The translations under genes were made by a program, and so were the position numbers. A DNA stretch of 64,000 nucleotides from Catellatospora sichuanensis (lineage in GTDB: Bacteria > Actinomycetota > Actinomycetes > Mycobacteriales > Micromonosporaceae): contig NZ_ML660183.1 in assembly GCF_007483665.1 (NCBI RefSeq), positions 357,393-421,392 on the forward strand, read 5' to 3'. Position 1 is the stretch's first letter; each line of letters starts with the position of its first letter. Of this stretch, positions 4,620 through 63,932 are shown piece by piece. Under the pieces are notes generated by a model. The model had not been told where the DNA came from. It saw nothing but the letters and a program-made list of their open reading frames with translations, and made no database searches.

Positions 4620-4666
4620 GAAGGTGCCCTTCCTCTACGTGGAGCGATGTGAAGGTGCCCTTCCTT
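4620..4666. repeat. Interspersed palindromic repeat, copy 1 (direct-arm form)
   Basis: Two copies of GAAGGTGCCCTTCC (4620-4633 and 4651-4664) flank a GCGATGT core. Unlike the other copies, the left arm here is in the same orientation as the right one; the motif is itself nearly palindromic, so a hairpin is still possible. The stop and last codons of the neighbouring minus-strand MocR gene lie inside the element. Confidence 0.85.
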
Positions 4667-6053
4667 TCTTGAAGGCGCGGGCCAGGCGGGTGATGGCTTC
4701 GTCGTGGTGGGCGGGTGGGGCGGCGGCGAAGGTGAAGCGCAGGTGGGGGGCGGGGGGTTCGGCGGCGTACCAGGGGCGGCCGGGGAAGACGATGACGCCC
4801 TCGGACGCCGCGGCGGTGGCGAGCGCGACGTCGTCGGTGCCTTCGGGTAGGCGGGCCCAGAGGTGCAGGCCGCCACGGGGGACGGCTTGCGGGGCGAGCT
4901 CGGGCAGGTGCCGGCGCAGTGCGGCGAGCAGGGCCTCGCGGCGTTCGCGCAGCGCCGAGCGCAGGGTGCGGCGGTGGCGGGCCCAGGCCGGGGAGGTGAC
5001 GAAGTCCAGGGCCGCCAGTTGCATCGGGCCGGCCACGAAGAAGTCGTCGAGCAGCCGGGCCGCCCGCAGCCGCGCGCCGGCGGGGCCGCGTGCGCCGATG
5101 GCCGCCACCCGCAGGCCGGGCGCGGTCGCCTTGGTCAGCGAGCGCAGGTAGACGATGTGCCCGTCGGGGTCGTCGGCGGCCAGCGGCGGCGGGGCCTCGC
5201 CGTCGATGGTGAGGTCGCGGGCGTAGTCGTCCTCCAGCAGGAACGCCCCGGCGGCGCGCACCGCCGCGGCGACCTCGGCACGGCGGTGTCCGGCCAGGGT
5301 CGCGCCGTGCGGGTTGGCGTAGAGGGGCTGGCAGTAGAACAGCCGGGCGCCGGTGCGGGCGAACGCGGCGGCGAGCTGGTCGGGGCGTACGCCGTCGGTG
5401 TCGGCGGGCACCGGCACCACCCGCAGCCCGGCGGCCCGCGCCGCGGCCAGCGCGCCGAGGTAGGTGGGCGACTCGACGAGCACGGTGTCGCCGGGGGCGG
5501 TGAGCGCGCGCAGCGCCGTGGACAGCGCGGCCTGGCCGCCGGGGCAGATCACCATGTCGTCGGCGCGCAGCCCGGCCCCGGCCTCGCGGGCGAACCAGGC
5601 GCGCAGGTCCTCGCGCCCCTCGACGTGTCCGCGCTGCCACGACGCGGGCTGGCGGGCGGCGCGGGTCAGCGCGGCCCCCAGCGCCGCGGCGGGTTGCAGG
5701 TCGGGGTCGAGGTAACCGCCGGACAGCGGGATGGCGCCGGCAGGCGGTAACGCCATCAGCGCCTGCATCTCCTCGTCGCCGGGCGGGCGCGCGCCGAGCG
5801 CGACGGTCTGCCAGGACAGGTCGGGCACCCCCGGATCGTCCGGCGCGGCGGCCACGAAGGTCCCCTTGCCGGGCCGCGCGTCGATCACGCCCTGTGCCAC
5901 CAGCTGCCGGATCGCCTCGGCGACGGTGACCGGTGAGGCCTGGTGCCGGGCGGTCAGCTCGCGCACCGACGGCAGCCGGGCACCGGGGCCCGCGACGCCG
6001 GCCAGCCCACGCAGATCTTGGATAACGCGGGCCACTGCGTTACCGTTATTCAT
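4635..6053 (-). CDS. MocR/PdxR-type regulator (GntR winged helix plus aminotransferase domain)
   Basis: 472 residues from ATG 6053. Residues 1-70 are a GntR winged helix (ARLPSVRELTARHQASPVTV). Residues about 105-465 are a fold-type-I aminotransferase domain with the PLP lysine in SLTKATAPG (K308) and the LFYCQPLYANPHG and FLLEDDYARDL blocks. MocR proteins bind PLP or a PLP-amino-acid adduct and control a divergent gene; here that is an EamA exporter whose start codon overlaps this one. The C-terminal residues KKGRAPSHRST and the stop codon are encoded by the interspersed repeat at 4620-4666, so the native C terminus has been altered or extended by the element. Confidence 0.92.
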   Translation of the reverse strand: MNNGNAVARVIQDLRGLAGVAGPGARLPSVRELTARHQASPVTVAEAIRQLVAQGVIDARPGKGTFVAAAPDDPGVPDLSWQTVALGARPPGDEEMQALMALPPAGAIPLSGGYLDPDLQPAAALGAALTRAARQPASWQRGHVEGREDLRAWFAREAGAGLRADDMVICPGGQAALSTALRALTAPGDTVLVESPTYLGALAAARAAGLRVVPVPADTDGVRPDQLAAAFARTGARLFYCQPLYANPHGATLAGHRRAEVAAAVRAAGAFLLEDDYARDLTIDGEAPPPLAADDPDGHIVYLRSLTKATAPGLRVAAIGARGPAGARLRAARLLDDFFVAGPMQLAALDFVTSPAWARHRRTLRSALRERREALLAALRRHLPELAPQAVPRGGLHLWARLPEGTDDVALATAAASEGVIVFPGRPWYAAEPPAPHLRFTFAAAPPAHHDEAITRLARAFKKGRAPSHRST

Positions 6054-6075
6054 GAAGGACAAGAGTAGCGCTACT
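6018..6075. promoter_or_regulatory. Shared MocR/EamA promoter with overlapping start codons
   Basis: On the plus strand TTGGAT (6018-6023), a 17-bp spacer and TACCGT (6041-6046) lie 5 bp before the EamA ATG at 6052, which predicts a leaderless transcript. The MocR ATG (6053-6051) overlaps it in the sequence CATG, so each promoter lies within the other gene's first codons. GTTACCG (6038-6045 region) and its complement CGGTAAC further on, and the 12-bp palindrome AGTAGCGCTACT at 6064-6075, are candidate regulator sites. Confidence 0.6.
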
Positions 6076-6990
6076 GTGCCCGTGGCGGTAACAGCGGATC
6101 GGGTGACCGGGCTGGTTCTGGGCGCGGTGGGTGTGCTGGCGTTCAGCCTTTCGCTGCCCATGACCCGGATCGTCGTGCAGCAGCTGGATCCCTGGTTCGT
6201 CGCCTTCGGCCGGGCCGTCGGCGCAGCCCTGCTGGCCTGGGCATACCTGCGGCTCACCGGGGCGCCCCGGCCGACCCGGACGCAGTGGCGGCGGCTGGCC
6301 GTCGTCGCCGCGGGCGTCGTGGTCGGCTTCCCGCTGTTCACCTCGCTCGCGCTGACCACGCAGACCTCCGCGCACGGCGCCGTCGTCATCGCCGTGCTGC
6401 CTGCCATGACCGCGATCTTCGCGGTGCTGCGGGCCGGCGAGCGCCCCCCGGCCACGTTCTGGGCCGCCGGTGCGGCCGGGCTGCTGGCCGTGCTGGCGTT
6501 CCTGGCCACCAGCGGCGCGGTCCGCGGCGCGCTGTCGGTCGCGGACCTGTTCATGCTGGCCGCAGTGGTGCTGTGCGGGCTCGGCTACGCCGAGGGCGGC
6601 GCGCTGTCGCGGGAACTGGGCGGTGCCCGCACCATCTGCTGGGCGCTGCTGGTCTCGCTGCCGGTCACCGTGCCGATCACGGTCGTCGCCGCTGCGGTGC
6701 ATCCCCCGCGCGCCGACCCCGCCGGCTGGGCCGCGTTCGGCTACCTCACCGTGGTCTCCATGTTCCTCGGCTTCTTCGCCTGGTACGCGGGCCTGGCCCG
6801 GGGCGGCGTCGCCCAGGTCGGCCAGATCCAGCTGGCCCAGCCGGTGCTCACCCTGGCCTGGTCGGCCCTGCTGCTGGGTGAGACGGTGACTCCCGCCTCG
6901 ATCGGAGCCGCGCTGGTGGTACTCGCCTGCGTCGTACTCATCCAGCGCACCCGTGCGAGCGCGCCCGCGCCCGCCGTCGGAAAGGTCTGA
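6052..6990 (+). CDS. EamA/DMT-family exporter
   Basis: 312 residues with about ten transmembrane helices arranged as two EamA repeats (about 20-150 and 165-300). The second ends in the typical AQVGQIQLAQPVLTLAWSALLLGE segment. DMT exporters of this class expel amino acids, metabolites or amines. It is divergent from the MocR regulator and 2 bp upstream of a PaiB-like protein, so a PLP-linked or amine-related substrate is plausible but inferred. The start is placed at ATG 6052 because a good promoter ends just upstream; GTG codons at 6076 and 6082 are alternatives. Confidence 0.9.
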   Translation: MKDKSSATVPVAVTADRVTGLVLGAVGVLAFSLSLPMTRIVVQQLDPWFVAFGRAVGAALLAWAYLRLTGAPRPTRTQWRRLAVVAAGVVVGFPLFTSLALTTQTSAHGAVVIAVLPAMTAIFAVLRAGERPPATFWAAGAAGLLAVLAFLATSGAVRGALSVADLFMLAAVVLCGLGYAEGGALSRELGGARTICWALLVSLPVTVPITVVAAAVHPPRADPAGWAAFGYLTVVSMFLGFFAWYAGLARGGVAQVGQIQLAQPVLTLAWSALLLGETVTPASIGAALVVLACVVLIQRTRASAPAPAVGKV

Positions 6991-6992
6991 CC

Positions 6993-11855: not shown

Positions 11856-12677
11856 ATGACGAACCCGATCGCCGATATCAACGTGCCGGAACTCAGCCGG
11901 CGGATCGCGGTGCTGGAGCGTCAGGAGGTCGGACGCTCCGCGCTCGACGTGTGCACCCTCACCATGGACCTGCGCCACAAGTACCGGCGCGCCCTCGTCG
12001 CCCGCGACCAGGCCGCATCGGCCCTGGTGGCGCGCGAGCGCTGGACCGCGGCCGACGTCGCCGAGGTCATCTGCGGCCACCGTGCCTGCGCCCCCCGCGC
12101 CGCGGTCATTCTGGAGTGGACCGGGCTGACGCCCGACGGCGGCACCGCGCGCGACCTGGCCGAACGCCAGCAGGTGGCGGTGCAGCTGCGCGAGCTGCTG
12201 ACGCTGGCATACGACAAGGCGCTGCGCCTGCTCCCGGCGGCCCCGGTCGACCTGAACCTGCCCGACGAGCCCACCGAACGGCTCGCCTACTGCGCGCACT
12301 GGCTGCGTTTCGTGGACGGCTACCGCGCCGCCAACGAGGCCTCGCGCATCCTGTTCGCCGCGATCCTGGCGCACCACCACGGCTGGGCTCTCCCGGACGT
12401 GGCCGCGCTGGGCGGGGTGACCACCGACGAGGTCGCCTCGGCGCTGGCCGCCGCGGAGGCCAGCCCGCCCTCCGACGCCGACAGCGGCCTGCTCGCGCAG
12501 CTGGCCCTGCTCGACCGCGTCCTGGAACACACCACCGAACGGCTGCTGGCCGTACGCGAACGCGCCCTGGCCGACAGCCTCGCCGACGGCGTCCCCGAAC
12601 GCGTCGTCGCCGCCCATATCGGCCTGCCCGCCCAGGAACGCTCCGCCGGCCACGACCTCGAGCCCTGCCCCGCGTGA
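11856..12677 (+). CDS. Hypothetical protein, mostly helical
   Basis: A 273-residue Ala-rich, mostly helical soluble protein that I do not recognise. It has no signal peptide, membrane segment or known catalytic motif. There are two helical halves: about 10-120, ending DLAERQQVAVQLRELLTLAYDKALRLLP, and about 130-250, containing EDL-like amphipathic helices and the segment GWALPDVAALGGVTTDEVASAL, which resembles a helix-turn-helix of the sigma-70 region 4 or MerR-like type. A similar short segment (RWTAADVAEVICGH) occurs near residue 60. It could be a DNA-binding or adaptor protein. An interspersed repeat begins 5 bp after its stop codon. Coding is well supported by length and composition. Confidence 0.7.
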   Translation: MTNPIADINVPELSRRIAVLERQEVGRSALDVCTLTMDLRHKYRRALVARDQAASALVARERWTAADVAEVICGHRACAPRAAVILEWTGLTPDGGTARDLAERQQVAVQLRELLTLAYDKALRLLPAAPVDLNLPDEPTERLAYCAHWLRFVDGYRAANEASRILFAAILAHHHGWALPDVAALGGVTTDEVASALAAAEASPPSDADSGLLAQLALLDRVLEHTTERLLAVRERALADSLADGVPERVVAAHIGLPAQERSAGHDLEPCPA

Positions 12678-12682
12678 CGACA

Positions 12683-12742
12683 GGAAGGGCACCGTCGGCT
12701 CGCGTCAGCGAGACGAGCAGCAGCTCTGCACACCGCCATGCG
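12683..12742. repeat. Interspersed palindromic repeat, copy 2 (long form, decayed right arm)
   Basis: It begins GGAAGGGCACC 5 bp after the preceding stop and continues into a 49-bp block (12694-12742) that matches 46 of 49 positions of 63865-63913. The block contains small hairpins CTCGC-GTCA-GCGAG and GAGC-AGCA-GCTC. The closing GAAGGTGCCC arm is not recognisable here. Confidence 0.75.
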
Positions 12743-12842
12743 GCTGCTCAGCGATCGCGGCAACGACCGCGGTCCCACGGGACGGCACCGGACGAGGCCG
12801 AGATTTTGCGCCGCCATCTCCGGCAGTGACCTGACTCACTGA

Positions 12843-12904: not shown

Positions 12905-14104
12905 ATGGCTGAGAGCACCAAGGTCATCGTGGTCGGCGGCGGATACGCCGGCGTGGTGGCGGCCAACCGTCTGACGCAGCGCGACGACGTGGCAGTGACC
13001 CTGATCAACCCGCGCCCGGCCTTTGTCGAGCGGATCCGCCTGCACCAGCTCGTCACCGGATCCGACGACGCGCTCGTGGACTACCGGCGGATTCTGGCCG
13101 CCCGCGTCGAGCTGGTCGTCGACACCGCGACCCGGATCGACGCGGCCGGGCGTCGCGTGACCTTGGCGAGTGGCGGCACCCTCGACTACGACTACCTGAT
13201 CTACGCCGTGGGCAGCGGATCCGCCGACCCGAGCGTGCCCGGCGCGGCCGAGCACGCCTACCCGATCGCCACGCTGGAGGAGGCGCAGCGGCTGCGGCCG
13301 GTCGTCGACGCCGCCCCGACGTCGGCCGCGCTGACCGTGGTCGGCGGCGGCTCGACCGGCATCGAAACCGCATCCGAGCTGGCAGAGCAGGGACGGAAGG
13401 TCACCCTCGTATGCGGCCGGGTGTTCGGGGCCTACCTGCATCCACATGCCCGGCGCGCGGTGGCCGAGCGGCTCACCAAGCTCGGCGTGACCGTGCTCGA
13501 AGGCCCCGGCGCGACGGTGACGGGCGTGACCCGTGCTGCGGTCCTGCTCGCCGACGGCCGCGAGCTGCCCAGCGCCGTGACCATCTGGACCGCCGGATTC
13601 GGCGTGCCGGATCTGGCCGTCCGCAGCGGGTTGAGCACGGATGCCATGGGACGCCTGCGCACCGACGAGACGCTCACGAGCGTCGACGACGTACGCGTCG
13701 TCGCGGCAGGGGACTCGGCGGCACCGTCGGACCTGCCGGTGCGGATGAGCTGCCAGTCCGCGATGCAGCTGGGCCCGCAGGCCGCCGAGACGGTGCTGAG
13801 CCGGATCGACGGCAAGCGGCCCGCCGACTTCAACGTCGGACTCTTCGGCCAGTGCATCAGCCTGGGACGCCGCGCCGGAGTCGTCCAGTACGCGAAGAAG
13901 GACGACTCCGTGACGAGGGTGTACCTGCTGGGCGGTCGGCCGATGGCGATGCTCAAGGAGGCCGTGTGCAAGAGCACCGTCTGGCAGCTGGCGCACGAGG
14001 CGCGCAAACCGGGCTCGCTCAACCTCTGGTTCAAAGACCGGCTCCGCCGGAAGTCGCTGCAGGTCAGGGCCGGTGAGTCACCGGTCGCCGCCCGGCGGTC
14101 CTGA
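12905..14104 (+). CDS. NAD(P)/FAD-dependent oxidoreductase (NDH-2-like), ECF41 partner
   Basis: 399 residues from ATG 12905 with GAAGGAGAGG upstream. Two Rossmann dinucleotide folds: the FAD motif VVGGGYAGVVAANRL (about 9-23) and the NAD(P) motif VVGGGSTGIETASELAEQG (about 141-159). A C-terminal FAD motif VRVVAAGDSAAP follows near 270. The layout resembles type II NADH dehydrogenases and AIF/FSP1-like reductases. No C-terminal amphipathic membrane anchor is obvious. It lies 12 bp upstream of an ECF41 sigma factor; ECF41 loci characteristically encode a carboxymuconolactone decarboxylase, oxidoreductase or epimerase, so this is the expected target gene. The reaction is unknown. Confidence 0.88.
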   Translation: MAESTKVIVVGGGYAGVVAANRLTQRDDVAVTLINPRPAFVERIRLHQLVTGSDDALVDYRRILAARVELVVDTATRIDAAGRRVTLASGGTLDYDYLIYAVGSGSADPSVPGAAEHAYPIATLEEAQRLRPVVDAAPTSAALTVVGGGSTGIETASELAEQGRKVTLVCGRVFGAYLHPHARRAVAERLTKLGVTVLEGPGATVTGVTRAAVLLADGRELPSAVTIWTAGFGVPDLAVRSGLSTDAMGRLRTDETLTSVDDVRVVAAGDSAAPSDLPVRMSCQSAMQLGPQAAETVLSRIDGKRPADFNVGLFGQCISLGRRAGVVQYAKKDDSVTRVYLLGGRPMAMLKEAVCKSTVWQLAHEARKPGSLNLWFKDRLRRKSLQVRAGESPVAARRS

Positions 14105-21205: not shown

Positions 21206-21244
21206 CACCTTCACCTCGCTACGCGTTGTGCAAGGTGCCCTTCC
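21206..21244. repeat. Interspersed palindromic repeat, copy 3 (degenerate left arm)
   Basis: The right arm GCGTTGTGCAAGGTGCCCTTCC is well kept except for one base; the left arm CACCTTCACCTCGC is partly decayed. It lies exactly where the GntR remnant breaks off and about 85 bp upstream of the phosphotransferase start. Confidence 0.75.
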
Positions 21245-33820: not shown

Positions 33821-33866
33821 GGAAGGGCACCTTCCACAACGCATGGCGATGTGAAGGTGCCCTTCC
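33821..33866. repeat. Interspersed palindromic repeat, copy 4 (full)
   Basis: Left arm GGAAGGGCACCTTCCACAACGC, apex ATG, right arm GCGATGTGAAGGTGCCCTTCC written in window order; together a 46-bp near-perfect hairpin. It begins 16 bp after the PhnB-like stop, and its right end is 2 bp from the stop codon of the membrane-protein gene on the other strand, so it fills the convergent gap. Confidence 0.92.
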
Positions 33867-55495: not shown

Positions 55496-55541
55496 GGAAG
55501 GGCACCTGCTACATCGCATAGCGATGTGAAGGTGCCCTTCC
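55496..55541. repeat. Interspersed palindromic repeat, copy 5 (full)
   Basis: GGAAGGGCACCTGCTACATCGC, apex ATA and GCGATGTGAAGGTGCCCTTCC, a near-perfect 46-bp hairpin. Its right end lies 2 bp before the stop codon of the 1046-residue membrane-protein gene; the Eis-like stop is about 95 bp to the left. Confidence 0.93.
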
Positions 55542-55543
55542 TT

Positions 55544-58500
55544 TCACGCGGGGCGGGTGCGGCCGATGGAGAGGAGCAGGCCGAAGGCGGTGACGGCGAG
55601 GCCCGCGACGGCGGCGTAGGCAGGCAGGTCGGCGGGGATGCCGAGATAGACGGTGATGCCGAGGATGCGGGACAGGCCCCACGGCAGCAGCGCCATCTGG
55701 TCGTTCCAGACGGTGAGGGCCTGTTCCAGGCCGACGGCGGCGATCAGGCCGCCGATCAGACCCAGCGGGACACCTGCCGCGACCAGGGTGAGGCCGACGG
55801 CGCGGCGGCGCAGCAGGCCGTACCGGTCGCGCAGGACCACGGCGGTGGCCACGAACAGCCAGCAGAACGCGGCGAACGCGACCGTGACGTAGACCGAGCG
55901 CAGCGTCGGCGAGGTCCAGAAGGCGAACCAGTACTTGCCCGGCCCGCGCCCGGCCAGCGCCGCCAGCAGGAGCACGCTGCGCAGCAGCGCGACGCCGCCG
56001 ATGACGGCCCACAGGTGGAACGGGTCACGCCGCCCGACGACCAGGCGGGCCACGGCGGCGAACAGCAGCCACCCGCCCAGCGTCACCAGCAGGTGCGCCG
56101 GGGCGGCGAACCAGGTGTACACGGCACGGCTCGCCACCAGCACGATCGCGGGCACCAGCCAGACCAGCACCCGGTCCAGCCGCGACGGCGGCGACTCCAG
56201 GCGGGCCACCCGCCACGGGCGCACCGCGCCGAGCAGCAGCGCCCGCGCCGCGGCGCCGCCACGGCCGCGACCCCACAGCCCCAGCAGCAGCACGACCAGG
56301 ATCAGCGCCAGCAGGCCACGGGCCGCCCAGGCCATCGCCGGGTCGCGGTCGGCCCGCACCGCACCGAGGTCCGCGGCGGTGAAGTTGTACGCGGGCAGGT
56401 CCAGGTTCCCGCCGTAGCGCTGCGCGTGCACGTCGCGTGCGCCGCGGTAGTGGGTCTCGGCCTGCCGCCAGCCGTCGTACGCGGCCTGCGCCCCGGTGTC
56501 GAGCCACTGCGCATGGCGCAGCACCATGGTGCGGTACGCGCCCAGCGTCTCGAACAGGTTCACCTGGTAGTCGAGCGTGCTCGTGAACGACTCGCGCAGC
56601 TGCGGATCGCGCCAGGTCGCCGGGTCGGTCGCGGCGACCAGGTCGCGCATGCGCCGGGCCAGCGCGACGGCTCGCTCGCCCTCGTCGATCGCCTGGTCGA
56701 CGCGGCCGCCGGTGACGGCGTAGATGCTGTCCAGTGCCGCCGAGTCGCCGGTGGCGATGTCCCACTCGAAGATCCACATCATCGGCGGCGGCTCCAGGCC
56801 CAGCGCCTTGACCGTCTTGTCCGCGTACGGCCCGAGGTACAGCCCCTTGGTCAGCGCCTCCCGGGACAGCGCCATGGCCTGCCCGATCGCCGCGACCGTG
56901 GCCGGGTCGCCGGAGAACGTGCGGTACGCCCAGTCCGCGGTGAACTGCGCCGGGTCGGCGTCCGGAGCCCAGGCCAACCGCGCGACGGCGTACGTGTTGA
57001 GGTCGTACAGCTGCCAGAAGCCCGCTCGCAGGTAGAGCGACATCGGGCCGGCGCGCAGCGGGCCGCCGTCCTGCGTCCAGTTCCAGACGCCCTCGACCTT
57101 CGGGTTCGCGGCCAGGAACTCGCGCAGCGCCTGCCGGTGCAGCACACCGAGGTCGTTGGGCAGCGAGCCGAAGCCCTCGAACTCCCGCCGCGCCTGGAAC
57201 TCCACGATCCTGCGGTGCTCGCCGGCCAGCAGCGTCGCGTTGAGCGGCAGGTGGCTGTAGAAGTCGCCGAGGGTGTACTTGGTGGACACGATCAGATGCG
57301 GGTCGTCGAACCCGCCCAGCACCTGCCGGTAGGAGTCCGGATTGGTGTGCAGGTCGCCGACCGCGCCGACACCGACGGTCCAGGTCCGGAAGATGACCTC
57401 CCGGTCAGCCCGGCCCGCGGTGTCGAGCAGCGCCCGCAGCATCGCGCGCACCGCGTCGTCGGTGGTGACCGCCAGGCGCGACGAGTAGTCCCAGCCGTTC
57501 TGCGCGTACACCTCGCCGCCCTCGCCGATGCGCACCATCAGCCCGTCCACGAACGGCAGGCTCTCGAACAGCTCGGCCAGGCCCGCCTGGTACACGGCCC
57601 ACAGCCGCGGGTCGGCCACGTCGAGGCCGCCGACGGTGCGCTGCAGGTACGCCTCCAGCGGCGGGGATACCGCGAGCATGTCCGTGAGCAGGAAGACCTT
57701 CATGCCCATGTCCTCGGCGTACCGGAAGACCGGGCCGAACGCGGCGACCATCGCCTTGGCCCGGTCGACGTGGGTGTCGCCGGCCGGGTAGACGGCGCGG
57801 CCGTCGCCGACCTTGGCGAACGTGACGTACTCCAGGAAGCCCGGCACGACCACGCCGTTGTAGCCCTGCGCCGCCGAGTGGTCCACGAACTGCCGGAACT
57901 GCTGGTCGATGCGTGCCACCGCGGCGGGGTCGACCCACGGGGCCTGCGGCAGCAGTGCCTCGCCGACCACGTCGGTGTTGAGGTTGTAGTCGTCGCCCGC
58001 GGCGAACGCGGCGGCGTCCGGCTCGCGCCCGACCGACCCGGCGTCGGTCAGCCGCAGCCCCAGCCGCGGCGTGACGACCCGCCCGTCCTCCCCGGCCGGA
58101 ACGACCGCGACGCCGGACCGGATCCGGTCGGCGATCCGGTACAGCCCGTCCGCGGTTCCGGCGACGTCGGTGCCCTCCACGGCCAGTTCGGCGCCGCGCG
58201 CGGTGATCCGGTACGAGTCCGGCGCGGCAGCGAGTGTCGCCAGCACACCCGCGCGCAACGTGGTCGCGCCGGCAGCCGTGGGCGTAGTGGCGGGCGGGGT
58301 CACGGCCGACGCGGGCGACGTGGCACCGGGCCGCGTGGGTGCCGTGACCGGCGCGGGTGCCGTGGTGACCGCCGGGCGGGGCAGGCCGCGGGCGGCGAGC
58401 GCGTCGGCGACCGCGGTCGCGGCCTTGGTCAGGCGCAGATCGGCGGGGACGGCGATGGCGGTGACCGGCGGCGCGGGCGCGATCTCGCGCTGCGGGGCGG

Positions 58501-58684
58501 CGACCGGGTCCTCGCGCGGAATGGCGGCCGGGGTGTGGCTCAGGCCGAGCGCGTCCCCGACGCCCCAGGCCACGCCCGCGCCGAGCAGCAGCAGGACGAC
58601 GGCTGCGGCAAGCAGCGGATATGGCTTACGGGCGCGGGGAACATGAAACACGCTCGCATCGTAGTGCCGTCGGGGCTCCGGCAT
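55544..58684 (-). CDS. Membrane-anchored glycosidase-like protein (GH67-like architecture)
   Basis: 1046 residues. A basic N terminus and one membrane helix (about 20-47), an Ala/Pro/Thr linker, an alpha/beta N-terminal domain (about 75-205) that resembles the GH67 or other glycosidase N-domain (AAAPDSYRITARGAELAVEGTDVAGTADGLYRIADRI), then a large TIM-barrel-like domain (about 205-700) with acidic motifs such as GYNGVVVPGFLEYV, VDGLMVRIGEGGEVYAQNGW and VWNWTQDGG. A helical domain follows to about 790, and then about eight C-terminal membrane helices (about 805-1040). The substrate and the catalytic acids are not established; a cell-surface carbohydrate is likely. Confidence 0.8.
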   Translation of the reverse strand: MPEPRRHYDASVFHVPRARKPYPLLAAAVVLLLLGAGVAWGVGDALGLSHTPAAIPREDPVAAPQREIAPAPPVTAIAVPADLRLTKAATAVADALAARGLPRPAVTTAPAPVTAPTRPGATSPASAVTPPATTPTAAGATTLRAGVLATLAAAPDSYRITARGAELAVEGTDVAGTADGLYRIADRIRSGVAVVPAGEDGRVVTPRLGLRLTDAGSVGREPDAAAFAAGDDYNLNTDVVGEALLPQAPWVDPAAVARIDQQFRQFVDHSAAQGYNGVVVPGFLEYVTFAKVGDGRAVYPAGDTHVDRAKAMVAAFGPVFRYAEDMGMKVFLLTDMLAVSPPLEAYLQRTVGGLDVADPRLWAVYQAGLAELFESLPFVDGLMVRIGEGGEVYAQNGWDYSSRLAVTTDDAVRAMLRALLDTAGRADREVIFRTWTVGVGAVGDLHTNPDSYRQVLGGFDDPHLIVSTKYTLGDFYSHLPLNATLLAGEHRRIVEFQARREFEGFGSLPNDLGVLHRQALREFLAANPKVEGVWNWTQDGGPLRAGPMSLYLRAGFWQLYDLNTYAVARLAWAPDADPAQFTADWAYRTFSGDPATVAAIGQAMALSREALTKGLYLGPYADKTVKALGLEPPPMMWIFEWDIATGDSAALDSIYAVTGGRVDQAIDEGERAVALARRMRDLVAATDPATWRDPQLRESFTSTLDYQVNLFETLGAYRTMVLRHAQWLDTGAQAAYDGWRQAETHYRGARDVHAQRYGGNLDLPAYNFTAADLGAVRADRDPAMAWAARGLLALILVVLLLGLWGRGRGGAAARALLLGAVRPWRVARLESPPSRLDRVLVWLVPAIVLVASRAVYTWFAAPAHLLVTLGGWLLFAAVARLVVGRRDPFHLWAVIGGVALLRSVLLLAALAGRGPGKYWFAFWTSPTLRSVYVTVAFAAFCWLFVATAVVLRDRYGLLRRRAVGLTLVAAGVPLGLIGGLIAAVGLEQALTVWNDQMALLPWGLSRILGITVYLGIPADLPAYAAVAGLAVTAFGLLLSIGRTRPA

Positions 58685-58750
58685 TGATCACGATTTCCCA
58701 ACGGAAACAGCCACGGCACGCTTCGTCACCGAAAGTATCACCGAGCCAAC

Positions 58751-58781
58751 TTGACCTTGACGTAACGTCAACGTCTCTAAT
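58751..58781 (+). promoter_or_regulatory. MerR-type promoter with 19-bp spacer
   Basis: TTGACC (58751-58756), a 19-bp spacer and TCTAAT (58776-58781). The spacer contains the palindrome TTGACGT-A-ACGTCAA (58757-58771). An over-long spacer with a central palindrome is the hallmark of promoters activated by MerR proteins. The ATG follows 7 bp later. Confidence 0.85.
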
Positions 58782-58788
58782 AGGTGCC

Positions 58789-59541
58789 ATGCGTATCGGC
58801 GAACTGGCTGCGCTGGTCGGGGTGACCACCCGTACCGTGCGCCACTACCACCACCTCGGGCTGCTGCCCGAGCCCGAGCGGACCCCCGGCGGCTACCGCG
58901 AGTACCGGGTGCGCGATGCGGTGCTGCTCGCCCGGGTCCGCCGCCTCGCCGAGCTGGGCCTGTCCCTCGACGAGATCCGCGACGTGCTCGCCGACGACGA
59001 GGGCCGCGAGCTGCGCGAGGTGCTCACCGAGCTGGACGCCGACCTGGCCCGCCAGCAGGACGCCATCCTCGCCCGCCGGGCCCGGCTGGCAACGCTGCTG
59101 GCCGACGCCGACCTCAACCCCGACACCACTGTCGCCCCCGATTTCGGGGACCTGCTGCACGACCTGCATCCGGCCGGCTCCGCGTTCGCCGCGCTCGACC
59201 GCGACATGCTGTCGCTGATCGACACCGGCGCCGACCCGGCCGCCCGGGAACAGCTCATGGCGATGTTCCGGCCGCTCACCGACCCGGACGCACGGGCCAG
59301 GGGCCACGCCCTCACCGCACGGATGGACGCGATCGCCGGCGCGGACCCGGCCGATTCGCGGGTCTCCGCGCTCGCGGTCGACCTCGCGGCCCACCTGCCC
59401 GCTGAGATGGCCGCCGCGATGGTGGCGAGCCTCGACGAGGCGGAGACCGGCCGCTGGCTGGACCTGATGACCTCCGAACTCACCCCCGCCCAGGCCGAGG
59501 TGCTGCGCCTGATGGTGACGACACTGAAGGAGCGCGCATGA
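58789..59541 (+). CDS. MerR-family regulator
   Basis: 250 residues from ATG 58789, probably leaderless. MerR HTH and wing at 1-70 (MRIGELAALVGVTTRTVRHYHHLGLLPEPERTPGGYREYRVRDAVLLARVRRLAELGLSLDEIRDVLAD), dimer coiled coil about 80-115 (LTELDADLARQQDAILARRARLATLL) and a helical C-terminal effector domain. It is autoregulated through the 19-bp-spacer promoter and its stop overlaps (ATGATG) the next gene, a membrane protein likely to be its functional partner. The ligand is unknown; no Cys cluster, so metal sensing is unlikely. Confidence 0.94.
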   Translation: MRIGELAALVGVTTRTVRHYHHLGLLPEPERTPGGYREYRVRDAVLLARVRRLAELGLSLDEIRDVLADDEGRELREVLTELDADLARQQDAILARRARLATLLADADLNPDTTVAPDFGDLLHDLHPAGSAFAALDRDMLSLIDTGADPAAREQLMAMFRPLTDPDARARGHALTARMDAIAGADPADSRVSALAVDLAAHLPAEMAAAMVASLDEAETGRWLDLMTSELTPAQAEVLRLMVTTLKERA

Positions 59542-60407
59542 TGCTGAAGATCGCCAGGGCGGCCCTGTTCGCCATGGTGCCGGCGGAGGTGGTACTCGCC
59601 GTTCTGCTGGTGTCCGGGGTCGCGCTACCGCGCCCGGTCCTCACCGTCGCCGAGCTGGTCGTGCTGGCGGTGCTGCTGCTGGAGGTCCTGGTGCTGTGGC
59701 AGCGCTACCGCGCCCTGCGCCAGGACGGCGCAGGGCGTACGGCGGCCCTGCGCGGCGCGTACGAGCAGATCGTGCCCGAAAAGGTGCGGCGGATCATGGG
59801 CTTCGACGTCAAGGGCATGGTCAGCCTGGTGCTCTGGGTCGGCCGTCGCCGGCACGGGGTGCCGCCTGGCGCCGTGGCACTGTCGTACCACCGCGAGCAG
59901 ACGGTGCTCATGTTCGGGTTCCTGTCCGCCTGCGTGATCGAGCTCGTCGGCGTGGAGATCCTGCTGCGCTCGCTGGACGCTCCGGTCGGGCTGCGCGCGG
60001 TGGTGCTCGCGCTCGACGCATACGGCATCCTGATCGCGCTGGCCGTCATCGCCAGCTACGTCACCCGCCCGCACGTCGTCACCGCCGACGAGCTGCGCGT
60101 GCGCTACGGCGCGTTCTTCGACCTGCGCATCCCCCGCCGCCTCGTCACCGGCGTGCAGCACAAGCGCAACTACAACGAGACTGGCATGATCAAGATGGTC
60201 GGCGAGTGCATGGCCCTGGCCGCGAACAACCAGACCAACGTGATCATCGAGCTCGCCGAGCCCGTCGTCGCGGTACGCCCGCTGGGGCGGCGCGAGCATG
60301 TCCGCGTGCTGCGGTTCTTCGCCGACGACCCGTCGGCCGCCGTCGAGGCGCTGCGGCCGACCCGGGACTCGGCCGCCATCGGCCAGGCCGGTCGGGCCTC
60401 CGTCTGA
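59538..60407 (+). CDS. Multi-pass membrane protein downstream of MerR
   Basis: 289 residues. Two close N-terminal membrane helices (about 8-25 and 33-52), a cytoplasmic loop with a conserved-looking RRIMGFDVKGMVSLVLWVGRRRHGVPPGAVALSYHREQT, two further helices (about 120-145 and 155-175), then a C-terminal PH-like cytoplasmic domain (VTADELRVRYGAFFDLRIPRRLVTGVQHKRNYNETGMIKMVG). I do not recognise a named family. It is translated from the same mRNA as MerR, so it is the best candidate effector gene of that regulator. Confidence 0.82.
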   Translation: MMLKIARAALFAMVPAEVVLAVLLVSGVALPRPVLTVAELVVLAVLLLEVLVLWQRYRALRQDGAGRTAALRGAYEQIVPEKVRRIMGFDVKGMVSLVLWVGRRRHGVPPGAVALSYHREQTVLMFGFLSACVIELVGVEILLRSLDAPVGLRAVVLALDAYGILIALAVIASYVTRPHVVTADELRVRYGAFFDLRIPRRLVTGVQHKRNYNETGMIKMVGECMALAANNQTNVIIELAEPVVAVRPLGRREHVRVLRFFADDPSAAVEALRPTRDSAAIGQAGRASV

Positions 60408-60447
60408 GGACAGCGACGCGGGTCGGCGGCTTCGTGAAGCTCGTCGC

Positions 60448-61311
60448 CTATGCGGCCCCGGTGAGGCGCTCGGCGATGAGCGCCGCAGGGCGGTCGGTCA
60501 TCAGGATCGTGTAGTGGTTCGTGTCGGAGACCAGCTCCGCACGCAATTGCGGGGCCCGTGCCGCCCAGTGCTCCACCACCGGCTGCGGGAGCATGCCGGG
60601 CTCCTGCCCGAACATGCCGCGCGGCGCGTACAGCAGCGTCGCGGGCAGGGCCAGTTTCACCAGGTCGTCGCCGAACGCGGAGCCGTTGACCAGCAGGTCG
60701 CGGCCGTCCGCGTAGACGGCCTCGGAACCGGTGCGGGAGCGGATCGCCCCGGGCTCGCCGGTCGCGTCGTAGCGCACGTACTCGGCCATGTCGTCGTTCC
60801 ACTCCCCGGCCAGCGCCGGGTGCGCCTGGAAGAAGGCCAGGTAGGCGTCCACCGACGGGTAGGTCTCCCGCAGCCGGGCGACGGCGGGGCCGATGGTCAG
60901 CTCCAGCAGCTGGTCCGCGTCGAACTGCGCCGGCACCGGCAGCGGCAGGCCGCCGTCGACCAGCACCAGCCGGCTGAACAGCTCAGGCCGCTGCACGGCG
61001 GCACGCAGCGCGGCGTACGCCCCCATCGACTGCCCGGTCAGCGCGACCGGCGCGCCCAGCTGCTCGGCGACCGCGGCGAGGTCGGCGGCGTGCGCGTCCA
61101 TGCCGTACGGGCCGGGCAGCCCGGCGCTGCCGCCGCGGCCGCGCAGGTCCACCGCGACCAGGCTCCAGTCCTCGGGGAGCTGCCTGGCCACGGCCCGGAA
61201 CGACATGGCCGAGGCGGTGATGCCGTGCGCGGCGAGCGCTGTCTTCGCGCCGTCGCCGAAGCGCAGCGCGTGCAGCGAACCGCCGGGAACCGAAAACTCG
61301 ATCGAGCGCAT
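60448..61311 (-). CDS. Alpha/beta-hydrolase (esterase/lactonase-like)
   Basis: 287 residues. Elements of the fold: AHGITASAMSFRAVARQL (oxyanion), VAVDLRGRGGSAGLPGPYGM, nucleophile elbow GQSMG (Ser95) and the C-terminal His in SDTNHYTILMTD. It is the second gene of an operon with a TetR regulator (3-bp gap). Hydrolysis of an ester or lactone ligand of that repressor is an attractive idea but not shown. Confidence 0.9.
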   Translation of the reverse strand: MRSIEFSVPGGSLHALRFGDGAKTALAAHGITASAMSFRAVARQLPEDWSLVAVDLRGRGGSAGLPGPYGMDAHAADLAAVAEQLGAPVALTGQSMGAYAALRAAVQRPELFSRLVLVDGGLPLPVPAQFDADQLLELTIGPAVARLRETYPSVDAYLAFFQAHPALAGEWNDDMAEYVRYDATGEPGAIRSRTGSEAVYADGRDLLVNGSAFGDDLVKLALPATLLYAPRGMFGQEPGMLPQPVVEHWAARAPQLRAELVSDTNHYTILMTDRPAALIAERLTGAA

Positions 61312-61314
61312 GGG

Positions 61315-61992
61315 TCAGCCTTCCTTCACGGGGGTGGCGGTTTCGTTCACGCGGGCTGCTCCCGCGATCTGGAGGGCGTAGCGGGCGTACGTGTCGGCGA
61401 CCTGGTCGCGGGTGTACGGCTGGTCGGGGCCGAACCAGTGCGCCACCTGCATGCCCATCGAGCCGATCGCGGTCGCGGCCAGCAGCGGGTCGGCGACGCG
61501 GAACACGCCCTGCTCGACGCCGAGCCGCAGCACGCGCAGACCGAGCTCGCGGGACTGCTCGCGAAGCGCCAGGGCGGGTGCGGCGCGGTCCGGGGACAGC
61601 GCGTGCAACTCGGCGTTGGCGACCAGGGCCAGCAGCGGGAAGTCGGCGTGCGCGCCGACCTGCGCCCGCACCAGCGCGGCGAGCTGCGCGGACGGCCCGG
61701 GTGGGGCTTCCACGAGCGCCTGCTGCAGGCGGCGGTGCAGTTCGGTGTGCCCGAGCAGGACCAGTTCGGCGAGCACGTGCTCCTTGGCCGGGAAGTGCGC
61801 GTACAGCGTGGCCGAGTTGATCCCCGCCGCCCCGGCCAGGTCGCGGATGGACGTGCCGTGGAAGCCGTACTCGGCGAACAGCCGCAGCGCCGACAGCAGA
61901 ATACGGCCGCGGGTGCCGGGCGGGGTGACCCCCTCGGGCAGCTCGACGGCGACGGCGCTCAGCCGCCGCGGCTCCCACCGGGGCGTCGTCAC
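61315..61992 (-). CDS. TetR-family regulator
   Basis: 225 residues from GTG 61992, RBS GAGGGAGAG. HTH at about 27-75 (TRGRILLSALRLFAEYGFHGTSIRDLAGAAGINSATLYAHFPAKEHVLAEL). The C-terminal domain is of the type with a Tyr/Trp near the end (GMQVAHWFGPDQPYTRDQVADTYARYAL). Divergent from a secreted esterase and co-transcribed with an intracellular hydrolase. Two copies of a CCxATC-4-GATTGG operator flank the shared promoters. Confidence 0.93.
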   Translation of the reverse strand: MTTPRWEPRRLSAVAVELPEGVTPPGTRGRILLSALRLFAEYGFHGTSIRDLAGAAGINSATLYAHFPAKEHVLAELVLLGHTELHRRLQQALVEAPPGPSAQLAALVRAQVGAHADFPLLALVANAELHALSPDRAAPALALREQSRELGLRVLRLGVEQGVFRVADPLLAATAIGSMGMQVAHWFGPDQPYTRDQVADTYARYALQIAGAARVNETATPVKEG

Positions 61993-62006
61993 ATGCTCTC
62001 CCTCTA

Positions 62007-62085
62007 CCGATCGAACGATTGGTTGACACCGTAACCGACCGAGCGCATAGTCGCTAGCAATCCTGTCACCCAATCAATCGATTGG
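62007..62085. promoter_or_regulatory. Two TetR operators flanking divergent promoters
   Basis: Operator 1 CCGATC-GAAC-GATTGG (62007-62022) and operator 2 CCAATC-AATC-GATTGG (62070-62085) share 13 of 16 bases or better. Between them a near-consensus plus-strand promoter, TTGACA (62023-62028), a 17-bp spacer, CATAGT (62046-62051), drives the esterase gene. Operator 1 abuts its -35; operator 2 lies downstream of the predicted start, and together they would shut off both directions. Confidence 0.82.
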
Positions 62086-62116
62086 TTGGCAACCGGAACC
62101 GAGAGGAGAGCGTGCC

Positions 62117-63091
62117 ATGTCTGTCCCGTCCCCGGACCGCACCGCCGTTCCACCGCTCCGCCGCATCGCCGCCGTCGCCGCCACCGCACTCGCCCTGCTC
62201 CTGGCGCAGTTGGCGGTGCCCGCCCCGGCACAGGCTGCGGGCGGGTTCTTCCACGGCGTCTACGCCAGCGTGTACGGCACCCGCGACTACCACGGCTACG
62301 TGCCGTCGTCGTACCGTCCCGGCACGCCCATGCCCCTGCTCGTCGCCCTGCACGGCTGCACCGAGAACGACGTCGGCTTCGACCTGCTCTCCGGCTGGAG
62401 CGCCGAGGCCGAGGCACGCGGCTTCATCGTGGTCCTCCCCGACCAGAGCAACGTGGTCAACCCCGCCACCTGCTGGAACTGGTTCCTGGAGACCAACCAG
62501 CACCGCGGCTGGGGCGAACCCGCCATCATCGCGGGCATCACCAACCGGATGCGCTCGCAGTACACCGTCGACGCCAGGCGGATCCACGCCACCGGCGTCT
62601 CCGCGGGCGGCGTCATGGCCAACATCATGGCGGTGACCTATCCGGACCTGTTCGCGTCCGTCTCCGTGATGGCCGGCTGCGAATACGACTGCGACGTGCT
62701 GCAGCTGCAATCGGCACGGGAGTCCGGGCGCAAGGCGCTGCAGGAGATGGGCAGCCGGGCCCGCCCCGTACCCGCGATCATCTTCCAGGGCACCGCCGAC
62801 CTCGTCGTCCCGCCGTCCACGGCGTACCGCATCGCCGAGCAGTGGACCACCGTGGCCGGCACCGACCCGGTCGCCGACACCGTGGTGCCCGGCCAGGTCC
62901 CCGGCGGCCGCACCTTCACCCACCTGACCTACCGCACCGCGTCCGGGCAGCCCCTCGTCGAGCAGTACATGATCGACGGCGCTGGCCACGCCTACCCCGG
63001 CGGCTGCTCCTGCAGCCTCTACGGCGACACCACCGGCCCCGACGCCACCGCCCTCACCTGGGACTTCTTCCTAGCCCACCCCAAACCCTGA
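62117..63091 (+). CDS. Secreted PHB depolymerase-type esterase (CE1/feruloyl-esterase-like)
   Basis: 324 residues. Signal peptide 1-40 (cleavage after APAQA). The alpha/beta-hydrolase catalytic domain begins with FFHGVYASVYGTRDYHGYVPSSY and MPLLVALHGCTENDVGFDLLSGW (the HGC oxyanion block). The lipase box is GVSAGG (Ser162), the Asp is probably in QGTADLVVPPS, and the His is in DGAGHAYPGG (near 292). Several Cys (for example GCEYDCD and GGCSCS) suggest disulphides. It matches esterase PHB-depolymerase family proteins that cleave polyhydroxybutyrate oligomers or feruloyl/acetyl esters. Under TetR control. An interspersed palindrome begins 9 bp past its stop. Confidence 0.93.
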   Translation: MSVPSPDRTAVPPLRRIAAVAATALALLLAQLAVPAPAQAAGGFFHGVYASVYGTRDYHGYVPSSYRPGTPMPLLVALHGCTENDVGFDLLSGWSAEAEARGFIVVLPDQSNVVNPATCWNWFLETNQHRGWGEPAIIAGITNRMRSQYTVDARRIHATGVSAGGVMANIMAVTYPDLFASVSVMAGCEYDCDVLQLQSARESGRKALQEMGSRARPVPAIIFQGTADLVVPPSTAYRIAEQWTTVAGTDPVADTVVPGQVPGGRTFTHLTYRTASGQPLVEQYMIDGAGHAYPGGCSCSLYGDTTGPDATALTWDFFLAHPKP

Positions 63092-63100
63092 CCGAGCAAA

Positions 63101-63146
63101 GGAAGGGCACCTTCTTAACGCTATGCGTTGTGGAAGGTGCCCTTCC
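63101..63146. repeat. Interspersed palindromic repeat, copy 6 (full)
   Basis: GGAAGGGCACCTTC and GAAGGTGCCCTTCC arms around AACGC-TAT-GCGTT, 9 bp after the esterase stop codon. Confidence 0.93.
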
Positions 63147-63196
63147 AAACTCCTGTTTCGCGTAATGCCAGGTGGGTGGTGGGGCAGGGTGGGGTG

Positions 63197-63847
63197 ATGG
63201 AGCCTGATGCCCACCGTCCGGTGCGGGTGCTGACCCTGGGCGGGTCGTTGCGCACGAACTCGCTGAACCGGGAGCTGGCCACGCTCGCCGCGCAGGAGGC
63301 GGCGCGGCTCGGCGCGCAGGTACGCCACGCGCAGCTCGGCGACTGGCCGCTGCCGCTCTACGACGGCGACATCGAGGAGACCACCGGGATACCGGACGCC
63401 GCGCGCGCCTTCGGTGAAGTCCTCGACGGCACCGACGCGATGATCATCGCTTCGCCCGAGTACAACGCATCGGTCCCGGCCGGGTTGAAGAACCTGATCG
63501 ACTGGACGTCGCGGCTGCGCCCGCAGCCCTTCTCCGGACGCCACGTGCTGCTGCTGTCGGCGTCACCATCGATGATCGGCGGCAACCGGGGCCTGTGGGC
63601 CCTGCGGGTCCCGCTGGAACACCTGGGCGCCCGCGTGTACCCGGAGATGTTCTCCCTGGCCCAGGCACATCATGCGTTCGACCCGAGCGGCGGCCTCGCC
63701 GACGAGGAGCTGAGCCGCCGCTTCACCGCGAACCTGCAGGGCTTCCTCGAACTGGCCGAGGCAGCGGTCAACTACCCCTGCGCCAAGCAGATCTGGATCG
63801 AGTTCCTCGGCGAACGCCCAGACCCCGTCGTCGACCGCATCGAGTGA
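63197..63847 (+). CDS. NADPH-dependent FMN reductase
   Basis: 216 residues from ATG 63197 (weak GGTGGGG upstream). Flavodoxin-like fold: phosphate-binding TLGGSLRTNSLNRELATLAAQEA, isoalloxazine loop IIASPEYNASVPAGLKNLIDWTSRL, LLLSASPSMIGGNRGLWALRVPLEHLGARVYPEMFSL. It matches the NADPH_dep_FMN_red family (azoreductase/chromate reductase/quinone reductase types), cytoplasmic and dimeric or tetrameric. The usual length is 180-200 residues; here the extra C-terminal 20 end in a polar tail. An interspersed palindrome follows 3 bp after the stop. Confidence 0.93.
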   Translation: MEPDAHRPVRVLTLGGSLRTNSLNRELATLAAQEAARLGAQVRHAQLGDWPLPLYDGDIEETTGIPDAARAFGEVLDGTDAMIIASPEYNASVPAGLKNLIDWTSRLRPQPFSGRHVLLLSASPSMIGGNRGLWALRVPLEHLGARVYPEMFSLAQAHHAFDPSGGLADEELSRRFTANLQGFLELAEAAVNYPCAKQIWIEFLGERPDPVVDRIE

Positions 63848-63850
63848 CCC

Positions 63851-63932
63851 GAAGGAGGGGCGTCGTCGGCTCGCGGCGGCGAGACGAGCAGCAGCTCTGC
63901 ACATCGCCATGCGTTGCAGAAGGTGCCCTGCC
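63851..63932. repeat. Interspersed palindromic repeat, copy 7 (long form)
   Basis: A degenerate left arm GAAGGAGGGGC, a 49-bp internal block (63865-63913) shared with copy 2, and the right arm GCAGAAGGTGCCCTGCC. The long form looks like the short form with about 35 bp added in the left half. Confidence 0.85.

What the first reader, a model, noticed from the sequence alone, without database searches (positions are those of the whole stretch)
4620..63932. Family of seven interspersed GAAGGTGCCCTTCC palindromes, mostly at gene 3' ends
Copies at 4620, 12683, 21206, 33821, 55496, 63101 and 63851 share the arm GGAAGGGCACCTTC / GAAGGTGCCCTTCC and an inner core near ACATCGC or ACAACGC around a 3-nt apex; three copies form near-perfect 46-bp hairpins. 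Six of seven lie within about 20 bp of a stop codon. Seven copies in 64 kb implies many in the genome. They look like REP/RIPE-type elements, perhaps moved by a RAYT-like enzyme or acting as 3'-end mRNA stabilisers or terminators.
Basis: partly seen in the sequence, partly recalled or inferred. Interest (0 to 1): 0.72.

Follow-up and report, generated by a model that had tools for sequence, protein, structure and literature searches.

The report
Dispersed terminator-like hairpins at gene ends
A soil actinomycete carries roughly two hundred similar small DNA hairpins just after the stop codons of its genes; they seem to have spread by copying and to stand in for the ordinary signals that end transcription.

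Summary
In detail: 13 arm matches in the window against 0.35 expected, 387 in the genome against 2 in the reversed control. The genus is Catellatospora. Three window copies are near-perfect hairpins, one is a centre-swapped variant, one a long form, two are broken. The unit is two 13-bp pseudo-palindromic arms (GAAGGnnnCCTTC) around an 18-nt spacer, its GAAA end a median 6 nt after a stop codon, convergent gene pairs favoured. The layout, with other arm centres, occurs in 8 of 44 genera sampled in the family. Orthologous gene ends turn over: ordinary GC hairpins, other repeat families, a long form, a flipped copy, or nothing. Convergent gaps holding it mostly lack another hairpin (8 of 70, against 148 of 233 without repeats). 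I read it as a copied, bidirectional terminator hairpin built like a REPIN but without a detectable RAYT: PF01797 finds nothing in 5 of 11 Catellatospora genomes, and the window genome's one hit is an ordinary IS200/TnpB element. Four unrelated hairpin families share the niche. Termination is inferred, not measured; how copies spread is unknown.

The parts
4620..4664 (-). Family A copy, centre-swapped variant (both arms GGAAGGGCACCTTC); supplies the stop codon of the gene 4635-6053 (-) from its inner part
   Evidence: at this gene end G002 and G007 hold short forms, G010 and G006 long forms, G003 and G001 the unrelated family D
12683..12755 (+). Family A long form, left arm kept, right arm lost; 5 nt after stop of gene 11856-12677 (+). 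Two genes (12905-15013) that are not found between the orthologous neighbours in G003, G010, G001, G002 and G007 follow it (end coordinate approximate)
21206..21244 (+). Family A copy truncated in its left arm; BLAST synteny with G003 and G006 starts exactly at 21206
33821..33866 (-). Family A near-perfect hairpin between convergent genes 33344-33805 (+) and 33869-34540 (-)
   Evidence: present in G003, G010, G006, G005, G001; no family hit at this gene end in G002 and G007
55496..55541 (-). Family A near-perfect hairpin 2 nt after the stop of 55544-58651 (-), convergent with 54210-55400 (+)
   Evidence: G002 and G007 have it flipped, abutting the other gene's stop; G001 has family D
63101..63146 (+). 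Family A near-perfect hairpin 9 nt after the stop of 62117-63091 (+)
   Evidence: in G001 the same place holds a hairpin of stem score 22 that looks like a family A copy with changed arms but kept pairing
63851..63932 (+). Family A long form (about 33-nt inner insertion), left arm decayed, 3 nt after stop of 63221-63847 (+, FMN reductase-like)

Best explanation
Family A is a copied, dispersed 3'-end element that works as a bidirectional transcription-terminator hairpin. SHOWN: a fixed layout (GAAA, 13-bp arm, 18-nt spacer, 13-bp arm, TTAAC) in high copy; orientation that follows the upstream gene in most copies, with the GAAA end a median 6 nt from the stop codon; preference for convergent gene pairs and scarcity between divergent ones; hairpin stability equal to that of the native hairpins in convergent gaps; scarcity of other hairpins in gaps where it sits; turnover and swapping at orthologous gene ends. 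INFERRED: RNA polymerase coming from either side is released at the hairpin, so the element insulates convergent genes and defines mRNA 3' ends; copies that land just after a stop codon are kept because they terminate, and their presence lets the old terminator decay. The conserved letters of each arm (GAAGG...CCTTC), together with the constant spacer length, point to something that reads the DNA or RNA sequence as well as the stem: either the unknown copying enzyme or a bound protein. The copying machinery is not a RAYT that I could detect.
For: Location: 36 of 64 intergenic own copies convergent, 25 tandem, 3 divergent (6 more of 70 fell inside called genes); background gaps of 40 nt or more 122/284/123, Fisher p 1e-7. 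Orientation: upstream gene reads towards the GAAA end in 54 of 64 own and 44 of 52 relatives' copies; among these the stop is a median 6 and 7.5 nt away. Substitution, gaps of 25-350 nt pooled over 11 genomes: stem of at least 9 beating shuffles in 148 of 233 convergent gaps without repeats, 8 of 70 with A masked (p 3e-15), 29 of 56 against 1 of 19 at residual length 25-60; divergent gaps without repeats give 38 of 353; own genome alone at residual 25-100: 26 of 46 against 2 of 16, p 0.003. Energy: A median -33.7/-31.7, 130 native convergent hairpins -34.1 kcal/mol; the 6 nt after the stem are 38% T in A, 21% in native hairpins, 14% in convergent gaps. Swaps at 20 gene ends with A in at least one genome: of 23 convergent states without A, 14 hold another hairpin and 1 family D (examples). 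Other genera: 12 convergent, 4 tandem, 0 divergent of 17 copies in 16 loci, 1 at the end of a fetched locus.
Against: No RNA 3'-end data. No canonical U-tract: a consensus scan of 45001-64000 marks none of the three copies there. The centre-swapped variant (15 of 63 own copies) folds at a median of only -20.8 yet is common, and the window's long forms fold no better than shuffles (z -0.5 and 0.25). Arm letters are more conserved than a bare stem needs: 7 of 13 arm pairs show the same letters in 53 of 53 distinct own cores, while the inner stem is only 70% paired (copies were found by their arms, which inflates arm conservation). With residual length 60-200 the exclusion in convergent gaps is weak (7 of 16 against 105 of 156, p 0.095), pooled gaps include orthologues, and masking cuts gaps into pieces. 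At the 20 gene ends, 8 of 23 convergent and 16 of 22 tandem states without A show no hairpin at all. The stem starts within the footprint of a terminating ribosome, which may melt it (recalled).
Confidence: 0.62

Rival explanations
1. A selfish REPIN-like repeat with no useful role: the doublet of short palindromes is copied by a transposase, and gene 3' ends are simply where insertions do least harm.
For: Two conserved inverted palindromes with a length-constrained, variable, partly covarying spacer match the REPIN description (PMC3116915, passages). At 17 of 20 gene ends with A in some genome, A is not in all genomes compared (decayed copies can be scored as absent). A tandem 31-bp array occurs in G268. 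GTAG lies at or just inside the right arm in 39 of 63 own copies.
Against: No RAYT found: 0 PF01797 hits in 5 of 11 Catellatospora genomes including one with 193 strict elements. A neutral insertion would sit beside the old terminator, yet another hairpin is scarce in such gaps. The register to the stop is tight: 41 of the 54 oriented own copies lie 0-16 nt behind it.
Confidence: 0.22
2. A double DNA-binding site: a dimeric protein binds each GAAGGnnnCCTTC arm, two sites on one helix face (31 bp centre to centre, about 64 in the long form; 10.5 bp per turn is recalled), acting as an insulator, roadblock terminator or chromosome organiser.
For: Arm 5+5 letters nearly fixed while the centre varies between and within species. 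62 of 66 arm pairs keep an 18-nt spacer, the other 4 have 17. Long forms add about 33 bp. In 7 G002-G007 pairs of copies matched by their flanks all arm letters are identical while spacers and flanks differ.
Against: No protein was sought or found. Constant spacing is equally explained by copying. Copies were found by their arms, so arm conservation is overstated. A derived copy in G001 keeps a long stem while giving up the arm sequence, as expected of a hairpin, not of a protein site.
Confidence: 0.1
3. An mRNA 3'-end stabiliser that blocks exonucleases, with termination by Rho or another signal downstream.
For: Same location and stability data; REPs are hypothesised to do this (PMC3733652 abstract).
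Against: Does not by itself explain the convergent preference, or why another hairpin is scarce in the gap when A is present; but a stabiliser could replace a terminator-stabiliser.
Confidence: 0.06

Closest known systems
REPINs / RAYT-associated REPs (Pseudomonas, Stenotrophomonas, enterobacteria; PMC3116915 and PMC2817692, passages seen)
   Same: High-copy extragenic palindrome doublets, conserved inverted ends, variable length-constrained spacer, hairpin, tandem arrays.
   Different: No RAYT detected in 5 of 11 Catellatospora genomes; total length 46-56 bp; copies tied to a stop codon with a preferred orientation; other hairpins scarce in the gaps where it sits.
GTAG- and CGTC-tagged REP superfamilies (PMC3733652, abstract and passages seen)
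   Same: Mostly downstream of genes and between unidirectional or convergent ORFs; species-specific families; several REP types in one organism; CGTC REPs also lack a known transposase.
   Different: That paper's main text has 0 occurrences of Actinobacteria, Streptomyces, Micromonospora or Salinispora. Here GTAG is present near only one arm, in 39 of 63 copies.
Repeated stem-loop families at CDS 3' ends (Bor, Ype, Efa; PMC1590033, passages seen)
   Same: Repeated stem-loops near gene 3' ends; convergent preference of stem-loops in general; proposed roles in termination or stability.
   Different: Other taxa; the orthologous swapping and exclusion shown here do not appear in the passages I saw.
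Bidirectional intrinsic terminators (recalled)
   Same: Stable hairpin between convergent genes, A-side and T-side flanks on both strands, close to the stop.
   Different: Sequence-conserved and dispersed in some two hundred copies; only weak T enrichment, no T run.

Membership tests
REP / REPIN | High-copy extragenic palindromic repeat | tested here: met
   387 arm hits against control 2; 64 of 70 own copies intergenic
REP / REPIN | Inverted doublet with conserved ends and variable, length-constrained spacer | tested here: met
   47 inverted and 15 centre-swapped pairs at one spacing, 4 one base shorter, of 66; arms nearly fixed, spacer variable
REP / REPIN | Unpaired GTAG or CGTC tag at the foot of the palindrome | tested here: inconclusive
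   GTAG at or within 8 nt inside the right arm in 39 of 63, on the left-arm side in 1 of 63; no background expectation computed; CGTC not counted
REP / REPIN | RAYT (Y1 tyrosine transposase) gene flanked by the repeats | tested here: not met
   PF01797: none in G002, G004, G006, G008, G009; G000's one hit is IS200 TnpA next to TnpB. A very divergent RAYT could be missed; hits in G001, G003, G005, G007, G010 were not inspected
Bidirectional transcription terminator | Stable hairpin just after stop codons | tested here: met
   (short forms; the window's long forms do not fold better than shuffles)
Bidirectional transcription terminator | Preference for convergent gene pairs, scarcity in promoter-only gaps | tested here: met
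   36 convergent, 25 tandem, 3 divergent of 64
Bidirectional transcription terminator | Takes the place of the ordinary hairpin | tested here: met
   8 of 70 against 148 of 233; weaker at long residuals (p 0.095)
Bidirectional transcription terminator | Run of T after the stem | tested here: not met
   38% T in 6 nt, above background 14% but no run; consensus scan of 45001-64000 misses the copies there
Bidirectional transcription terminator | RNA 3' ends at the hairpin | not testable with these tools
   no RNA data
DDE-type MITE | Terminal inverted repeats with target-site duplication and clean empty sites | tested here: inconclusive
   inverted arms present; no duplication seen by eye in the 15 gene ends printed, where intergenic flanks diverge too much for a clean empty site
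Integron attC site | Hairpin-bounded gene insertions / recombination at the sites | tested here: inconclusive
   gene adjacency broken at 14 of 26 convergent A comparisons against 51 of 118 without repeats (p 0.39) and 5 of 13 against 110 of 251 in tandem; but 8 of 8 at two divergent gaps with truncated copies; integrase not searched

The most novel reading that the evidence does not exclude
Micromonosporaceae end many genes with interchangeable, self-spreading terminator cassettes: several unrelated hairpin families (A-E) compete for the same gene ends, and family A is read in a sequence-specific way by a dedicated, still unknown factor that also drives its copying, so that arm and spacer types shift from species to species.
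Probability: 0.2. Interest if true: 0.8.

Novelty: new variant of a known kind. Interest (0 to 1): 0.56.

Why it matters
If termination is confirmed, these are mobile terminators: repeats that spread and are kept because they do the work of a terminator. That would tie an old puzzle (why REP-like repeats sit at gene ends and persist) to a testable function, offer a couple of hundred natural replicates of one terminator for Term-seq in high-GC actinomycetes, and give compact bidirectional terminators for engineering antibiotic producers. Text searches for the 14-mer (1 unrelated paper), for AAGGGGCCCTT with Micromonospora (none), Micromonosporaceae with 'palindromic repeat' (7), Salinispora with 'repetitive extragenic palindromic' (2) and Catellatospora with genome and repeat (19, of which 10 were listed) showed no paper whose title or abstract start, as listed, describes this family; none of these papers was opened.

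Tried and rejected
RAYT link: not supported. Rfam: no match in the window; in four own 20-kb stretches (L011, L022, L025, L034) only Ms_IGR-5, away from the element. Recombination hotspot or cassette (attC-like) idea, prompted by extra genes behind 12683 and 63101: adjacency is not broken more often at convergent or tandem A gaps, though it is at two divergent gaps with truncated copies, 8 of 8 comparisons. Strong concerted evolution: spacer identity of orthologous copies 0.81 against 0.70 for other copies in the close group (30 pairs), 0.75 against 0.70 (between) and 0.73 (within) for G002-G007 (4 pairs), 0.68 against 0.62 and 0.72 between the two groups (4 pairs), so there is ordinary inheritance with fast spacer change; only the two long/short swaps with similar flanks hint at conversion. 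Pure stem conservation: rejected as the whole story, since the inner stem is only 70% paired (shuffle mean 64%, max 69%) while arm letters are nearly fixed. None of ten proteins checked from the window genes next to copies matches a transposase family. DNA-uptake-type single arms: in the own sample 70 of 94 arm clusters are pairs; many of the 24 singles look like chance hits inside genes, not counted. The own sample was picked around exact arms, so densities from it are biased; contexts less so. Gene calls are from my own codon-usage script.

The pattern carried one N too many, so it found only a 47-nt variant; that scan could not be repeated.
Full report
WHAT IS THERE. The 14-mer GAAGGTGCCCTTCC occurs 13 times (up to 2 mismatches) in the window against 0.35 expected and 387 times (up to 1 mismatch) in the 9.45-Mb genome against 2 for the reversed control. 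An 8-kb stretch of a named record with the element, from Catellatospora coxensis, is 100% identical over the 3,001 bases compared to G005, a same-genus relative, so the genus is Catellatospora (Micromonosporaceae). At two arms per element this means roughly 200 copies (inference). In G007 a pattern for one left half alone gives 226 matches with up to 1 mismatch (a few symmetric copies may match twice).

ANATOMY. I took 40 stretches of the own genome around exact arms (with the window 855 kb) and found 94 arm clusters with up to 2 mismatches per arm: 47 inverted pairs at one spacing, 15 pairs that differ only in the three central letters of the second arm, 4 one base shorter, 4 with spacing 59-65, and 24 single hits, many of which look like chance matches inside genes. 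The oriented consensus is (G)AA | GGAAGGGCACCTTC | 18-nt spacer such as TTAACGCTATGCGTTGTA | GAAGGTGCCCTTC | TTAAC; the AA on the left is in 65 and 64 of 66 copies, the closing C on the right in 65 of 66. Each arm is itself a pseudo-palindrome GAAGG-nnn-CCTTC. A long form carries about 33 extra nt after the left arm. A weaker motif, TTGACCTGGGC, sits at a fixed 17 nt behind the right arm in part of the copies; a matrix learned on half of 123 copies peaks at exactly that offset in the other half (0.99 against at most 0.16 elsewhere). I have no explanation for it.

PLACE. With my own gene calls, 70 copies in the own sample fall 36 between convergent genes, 25 between tandem, 3 between divergent genes and 6 inside called genes; background gaps of 40 nt or more are 122, 284 and 123 (Fisher p 1e-7 for the convergent excess). 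In 54 of 64 the upstream gene reads towards the GAAA end, and in these the stop codon is a median 6 nt before the arm; five of them supply the stop themselves. In relatives the figures are 34 convergent, 14 tandem, 4 divergent, 1 inside, 44 of 52 oriented so, median 7.5 nt. In 16 loci from other genera, 17 copies: 12 convergent, 4 tandem, 0 divergent, 1 at the end of a fetched locus; in 4 of the 12 both stops lie within 10 nt.

SPREAD. The exact 14-mer is found 33-207 times per strand in 9 of 10 same-genus genomes, 3 times in the tenth (G009), and at most 2 times in all in each of 50 genomes from other genera. A generic pattern with free arm centres gives 29-193 strict elements in the 11 Catellatospora genomes and hits in 61 of 300 genomes and 8 of 44 genera of the family, Catellatospora included, with 0 in the reversed control of the rows shown. 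G009 and part of G004 have GGCCCC-type arms; other genera have GAAGGGCCCCTTC-type arms, and in the capped list the spacer is 17-18 nt although 12-34 were allowed. So the layout is found well beyond the genus but patchily, and GCA/TGC centres are the main Catellatospora type.

TURNOVER. I compared a 440-kb own contig with 480-kb stretches of G003 and G006 and 40-80-kb stretches of eight more relatives. At 20 gene ends with A in at least one genome, 3 have it in every genome compared, one of these three being seen in a single genome (decayed copies may be scored as absent). At the same gene end one finds the short form, the long form, a GGCGCC-arm variant (G006), the unrelated hairpin family D (G001, G003), family E (G002, G007), an ordinary GC-rich hairpin, or nothing. 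At 55496 the element points back to the right gene's stop in G000, G003, G010, G006 and G005 (43 nt away in G005) but abuts the left gene's stop in G002 and G007; at 12683 it is reversed between G003/G010 and G002/G007. In G001 the place of 63101 holds a hairpin of stem score 22 whose outer and inner parts still resemble A but whose arms changed with pairing kept. In 7 G002-G007 pairs of copies matched by their flanks all arm letters are identical, flank identity is 0.76-1.0 (left) and 0.63-0.97 (right), and the spacers differ, twice by a long/short swap.

WHY A TERMINATOR. If A were a passenger, the ordinary hairpin should stand beside it. Over gaps of 25-350 nt pooled from 11 genomes, a strong stem (score at least 9, beating shuffles) occurs in 148 of 233 convergent gaps without any repeat, in 8 of 70 with A (A masked), in 6 of 42 with families B-E, and in 38 of 353 divergent gaps without repeats, which serve as background; for tandem gaps it is 195 of 776 without repeats and 2 of 40 with A. 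At residual length 25-60 it is 29 of 56 against 1 of 19; in the own genome alone at 25-100 it is 26 of 46 against 2 of 16; at 60-200 the convergent contrast is weak (105 of 156 against 7 of 16, p 0.095). The pool contains orthologous gaps, and cutting the gap into pieces by masking lowers the chance of a stem somewhat; the length-matched rows and the divergent background are my only guard. A copies fold at a median -33.7 and -31.7 kcal/mol on the two strands, the 130 native hairpins at -34.1; native hairpins also lie near the stop (median 10 nt to the nearer one). T makes up 38% of the 6 nt after A's stem, 21% after native stems, 14% in convergent gaps. Steps shown: location, orientation, exclusion, energy, swapping. 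Steps inferred: that polymerase stops there, and in both directions.

WHY NOT ONLY A STEM. Of the 13 arm pairs 7 have the same letters in 53 of 53 distinct own cores, while the 7 inner pairs are 70% paired (shuffle mean 64%, max 69%) with some two-sided changes (32 cells, shuffle mean 18, max 28). In 14 of 53 the arm centres do not pair at all. Copies were found by their arms, so arm conservation is overstated; still, something seems to read the letters or copy the unit.

WHAT MOVES IT. Not a RAYT as far as PF01797 shows: none at E 0.001 in G002, G004, G006, G008 and G009; the own genome's hit is IS200 TnpA beside TnpB. G001, G003, G005, G007 and G010 have Y1 hits whose neighbourhoods I did not inspect. 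Broken gene order is not commoner at convergent or tandem A gaps; it is seen in 8 of 8 comparisons at two divergent gaps with truncated copies. No target duplication was seen by eye in the 15 gene ends. The enzyme is unknown.

COMPANIONS. The same genome holds at least four more palindromic families at gene 3' ends (B TGATCATGAACTTATGG, C GCAGTTTCGGGGAAACTGC, D ATAGACGTTGGCCTATC, E CGACGATCTTGCGCGAA): 19, 15, 14 and 12 copies beside 72 of A in 855 kb. A family D arm pattern was found in 3 of 81 genomes, all Catellatospora. On the own contig C3 none of A-E was detected in the first 180 kb (112 genes, largely not syntenic with G003 and G006), 18 lie in the rest (256 genes; p 0.0025), as if time in the core genome were needed. 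A single region, so only a hint.

COMPARISON. Architecture and turnover are those of REPINs (PMC3116915, passages; PMC2817692, passages) and of REPs between convergent and unidirectional genes (PMC3733652, abstract and passages); convergent-biased stem-loops and repeated stem-loop families are known (PMC1590033, passages). What is different is the undetected RAYT, the stop-codon register, and the evidence of exchange with native terminators. I therefore call it a new variant of a known kind, and do not file it as a REP, because the RAYT feature was tested and not met.

On rereading the calls I corrected the number of fully fixed arm pairs (7, not 8), added that the window's long forms do not fold better than shuffles, that arm conservation is inflated by how copies were found, that gaps are pooled over genomes, and the 8 of 8 broken divergent comparisons.

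Noticed in passing
own genome; window copies at about 29185-29244 (C) and 19099-19121 onward (E): At least four further unrelated palindromic repeat families (B, C, D, E) sit at gene 3' ends; D, E, B and C are each found at gene ends that carry family A or another family in a relative.
   Followed up: partly
right flank of family A copies, offset +17 from the right arm (e.g. behind 4620 on the minus strand): A fixed-offset motif TTGACCTGGGC follows part of the copies; unexplained.
   Followed up: partly
G000 contig C3, 1-180000: An own-genome stretch with little synteny to G003 and G006 shows none of the five repeat families.
   Followed up: no
G268 C9:218932-219037: Arms in a tandem array with 31-bp period, arm-spacer-arm-spacer.
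   Followed up: no
G002 against G007 at reference gene ends 275 and 303: Long form in one species, short form in the other, at gene 275 with left flank identical over the 45 nt compared: exchange or loss of the inner 33 nt in place.
   Followed up: partly
window 63221-63847: An FMN reductase-like gene with its own family A long form stands between 63101 and the gene that follows directly in G003, G006, G010, G005 and G001.
   Followed up: partly
genus g54 in the family survey: Strict copy numbers vary sharply within one genus (g54: 123, 85, 16, 15 and three genomes with 0), useful for finding the enzyme by gene-content correlation.
   Followed up: no
L011:18600-18833: Rfam Ms_IGR-5 sRNA match, unrelated to the element.
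   Followed up: no
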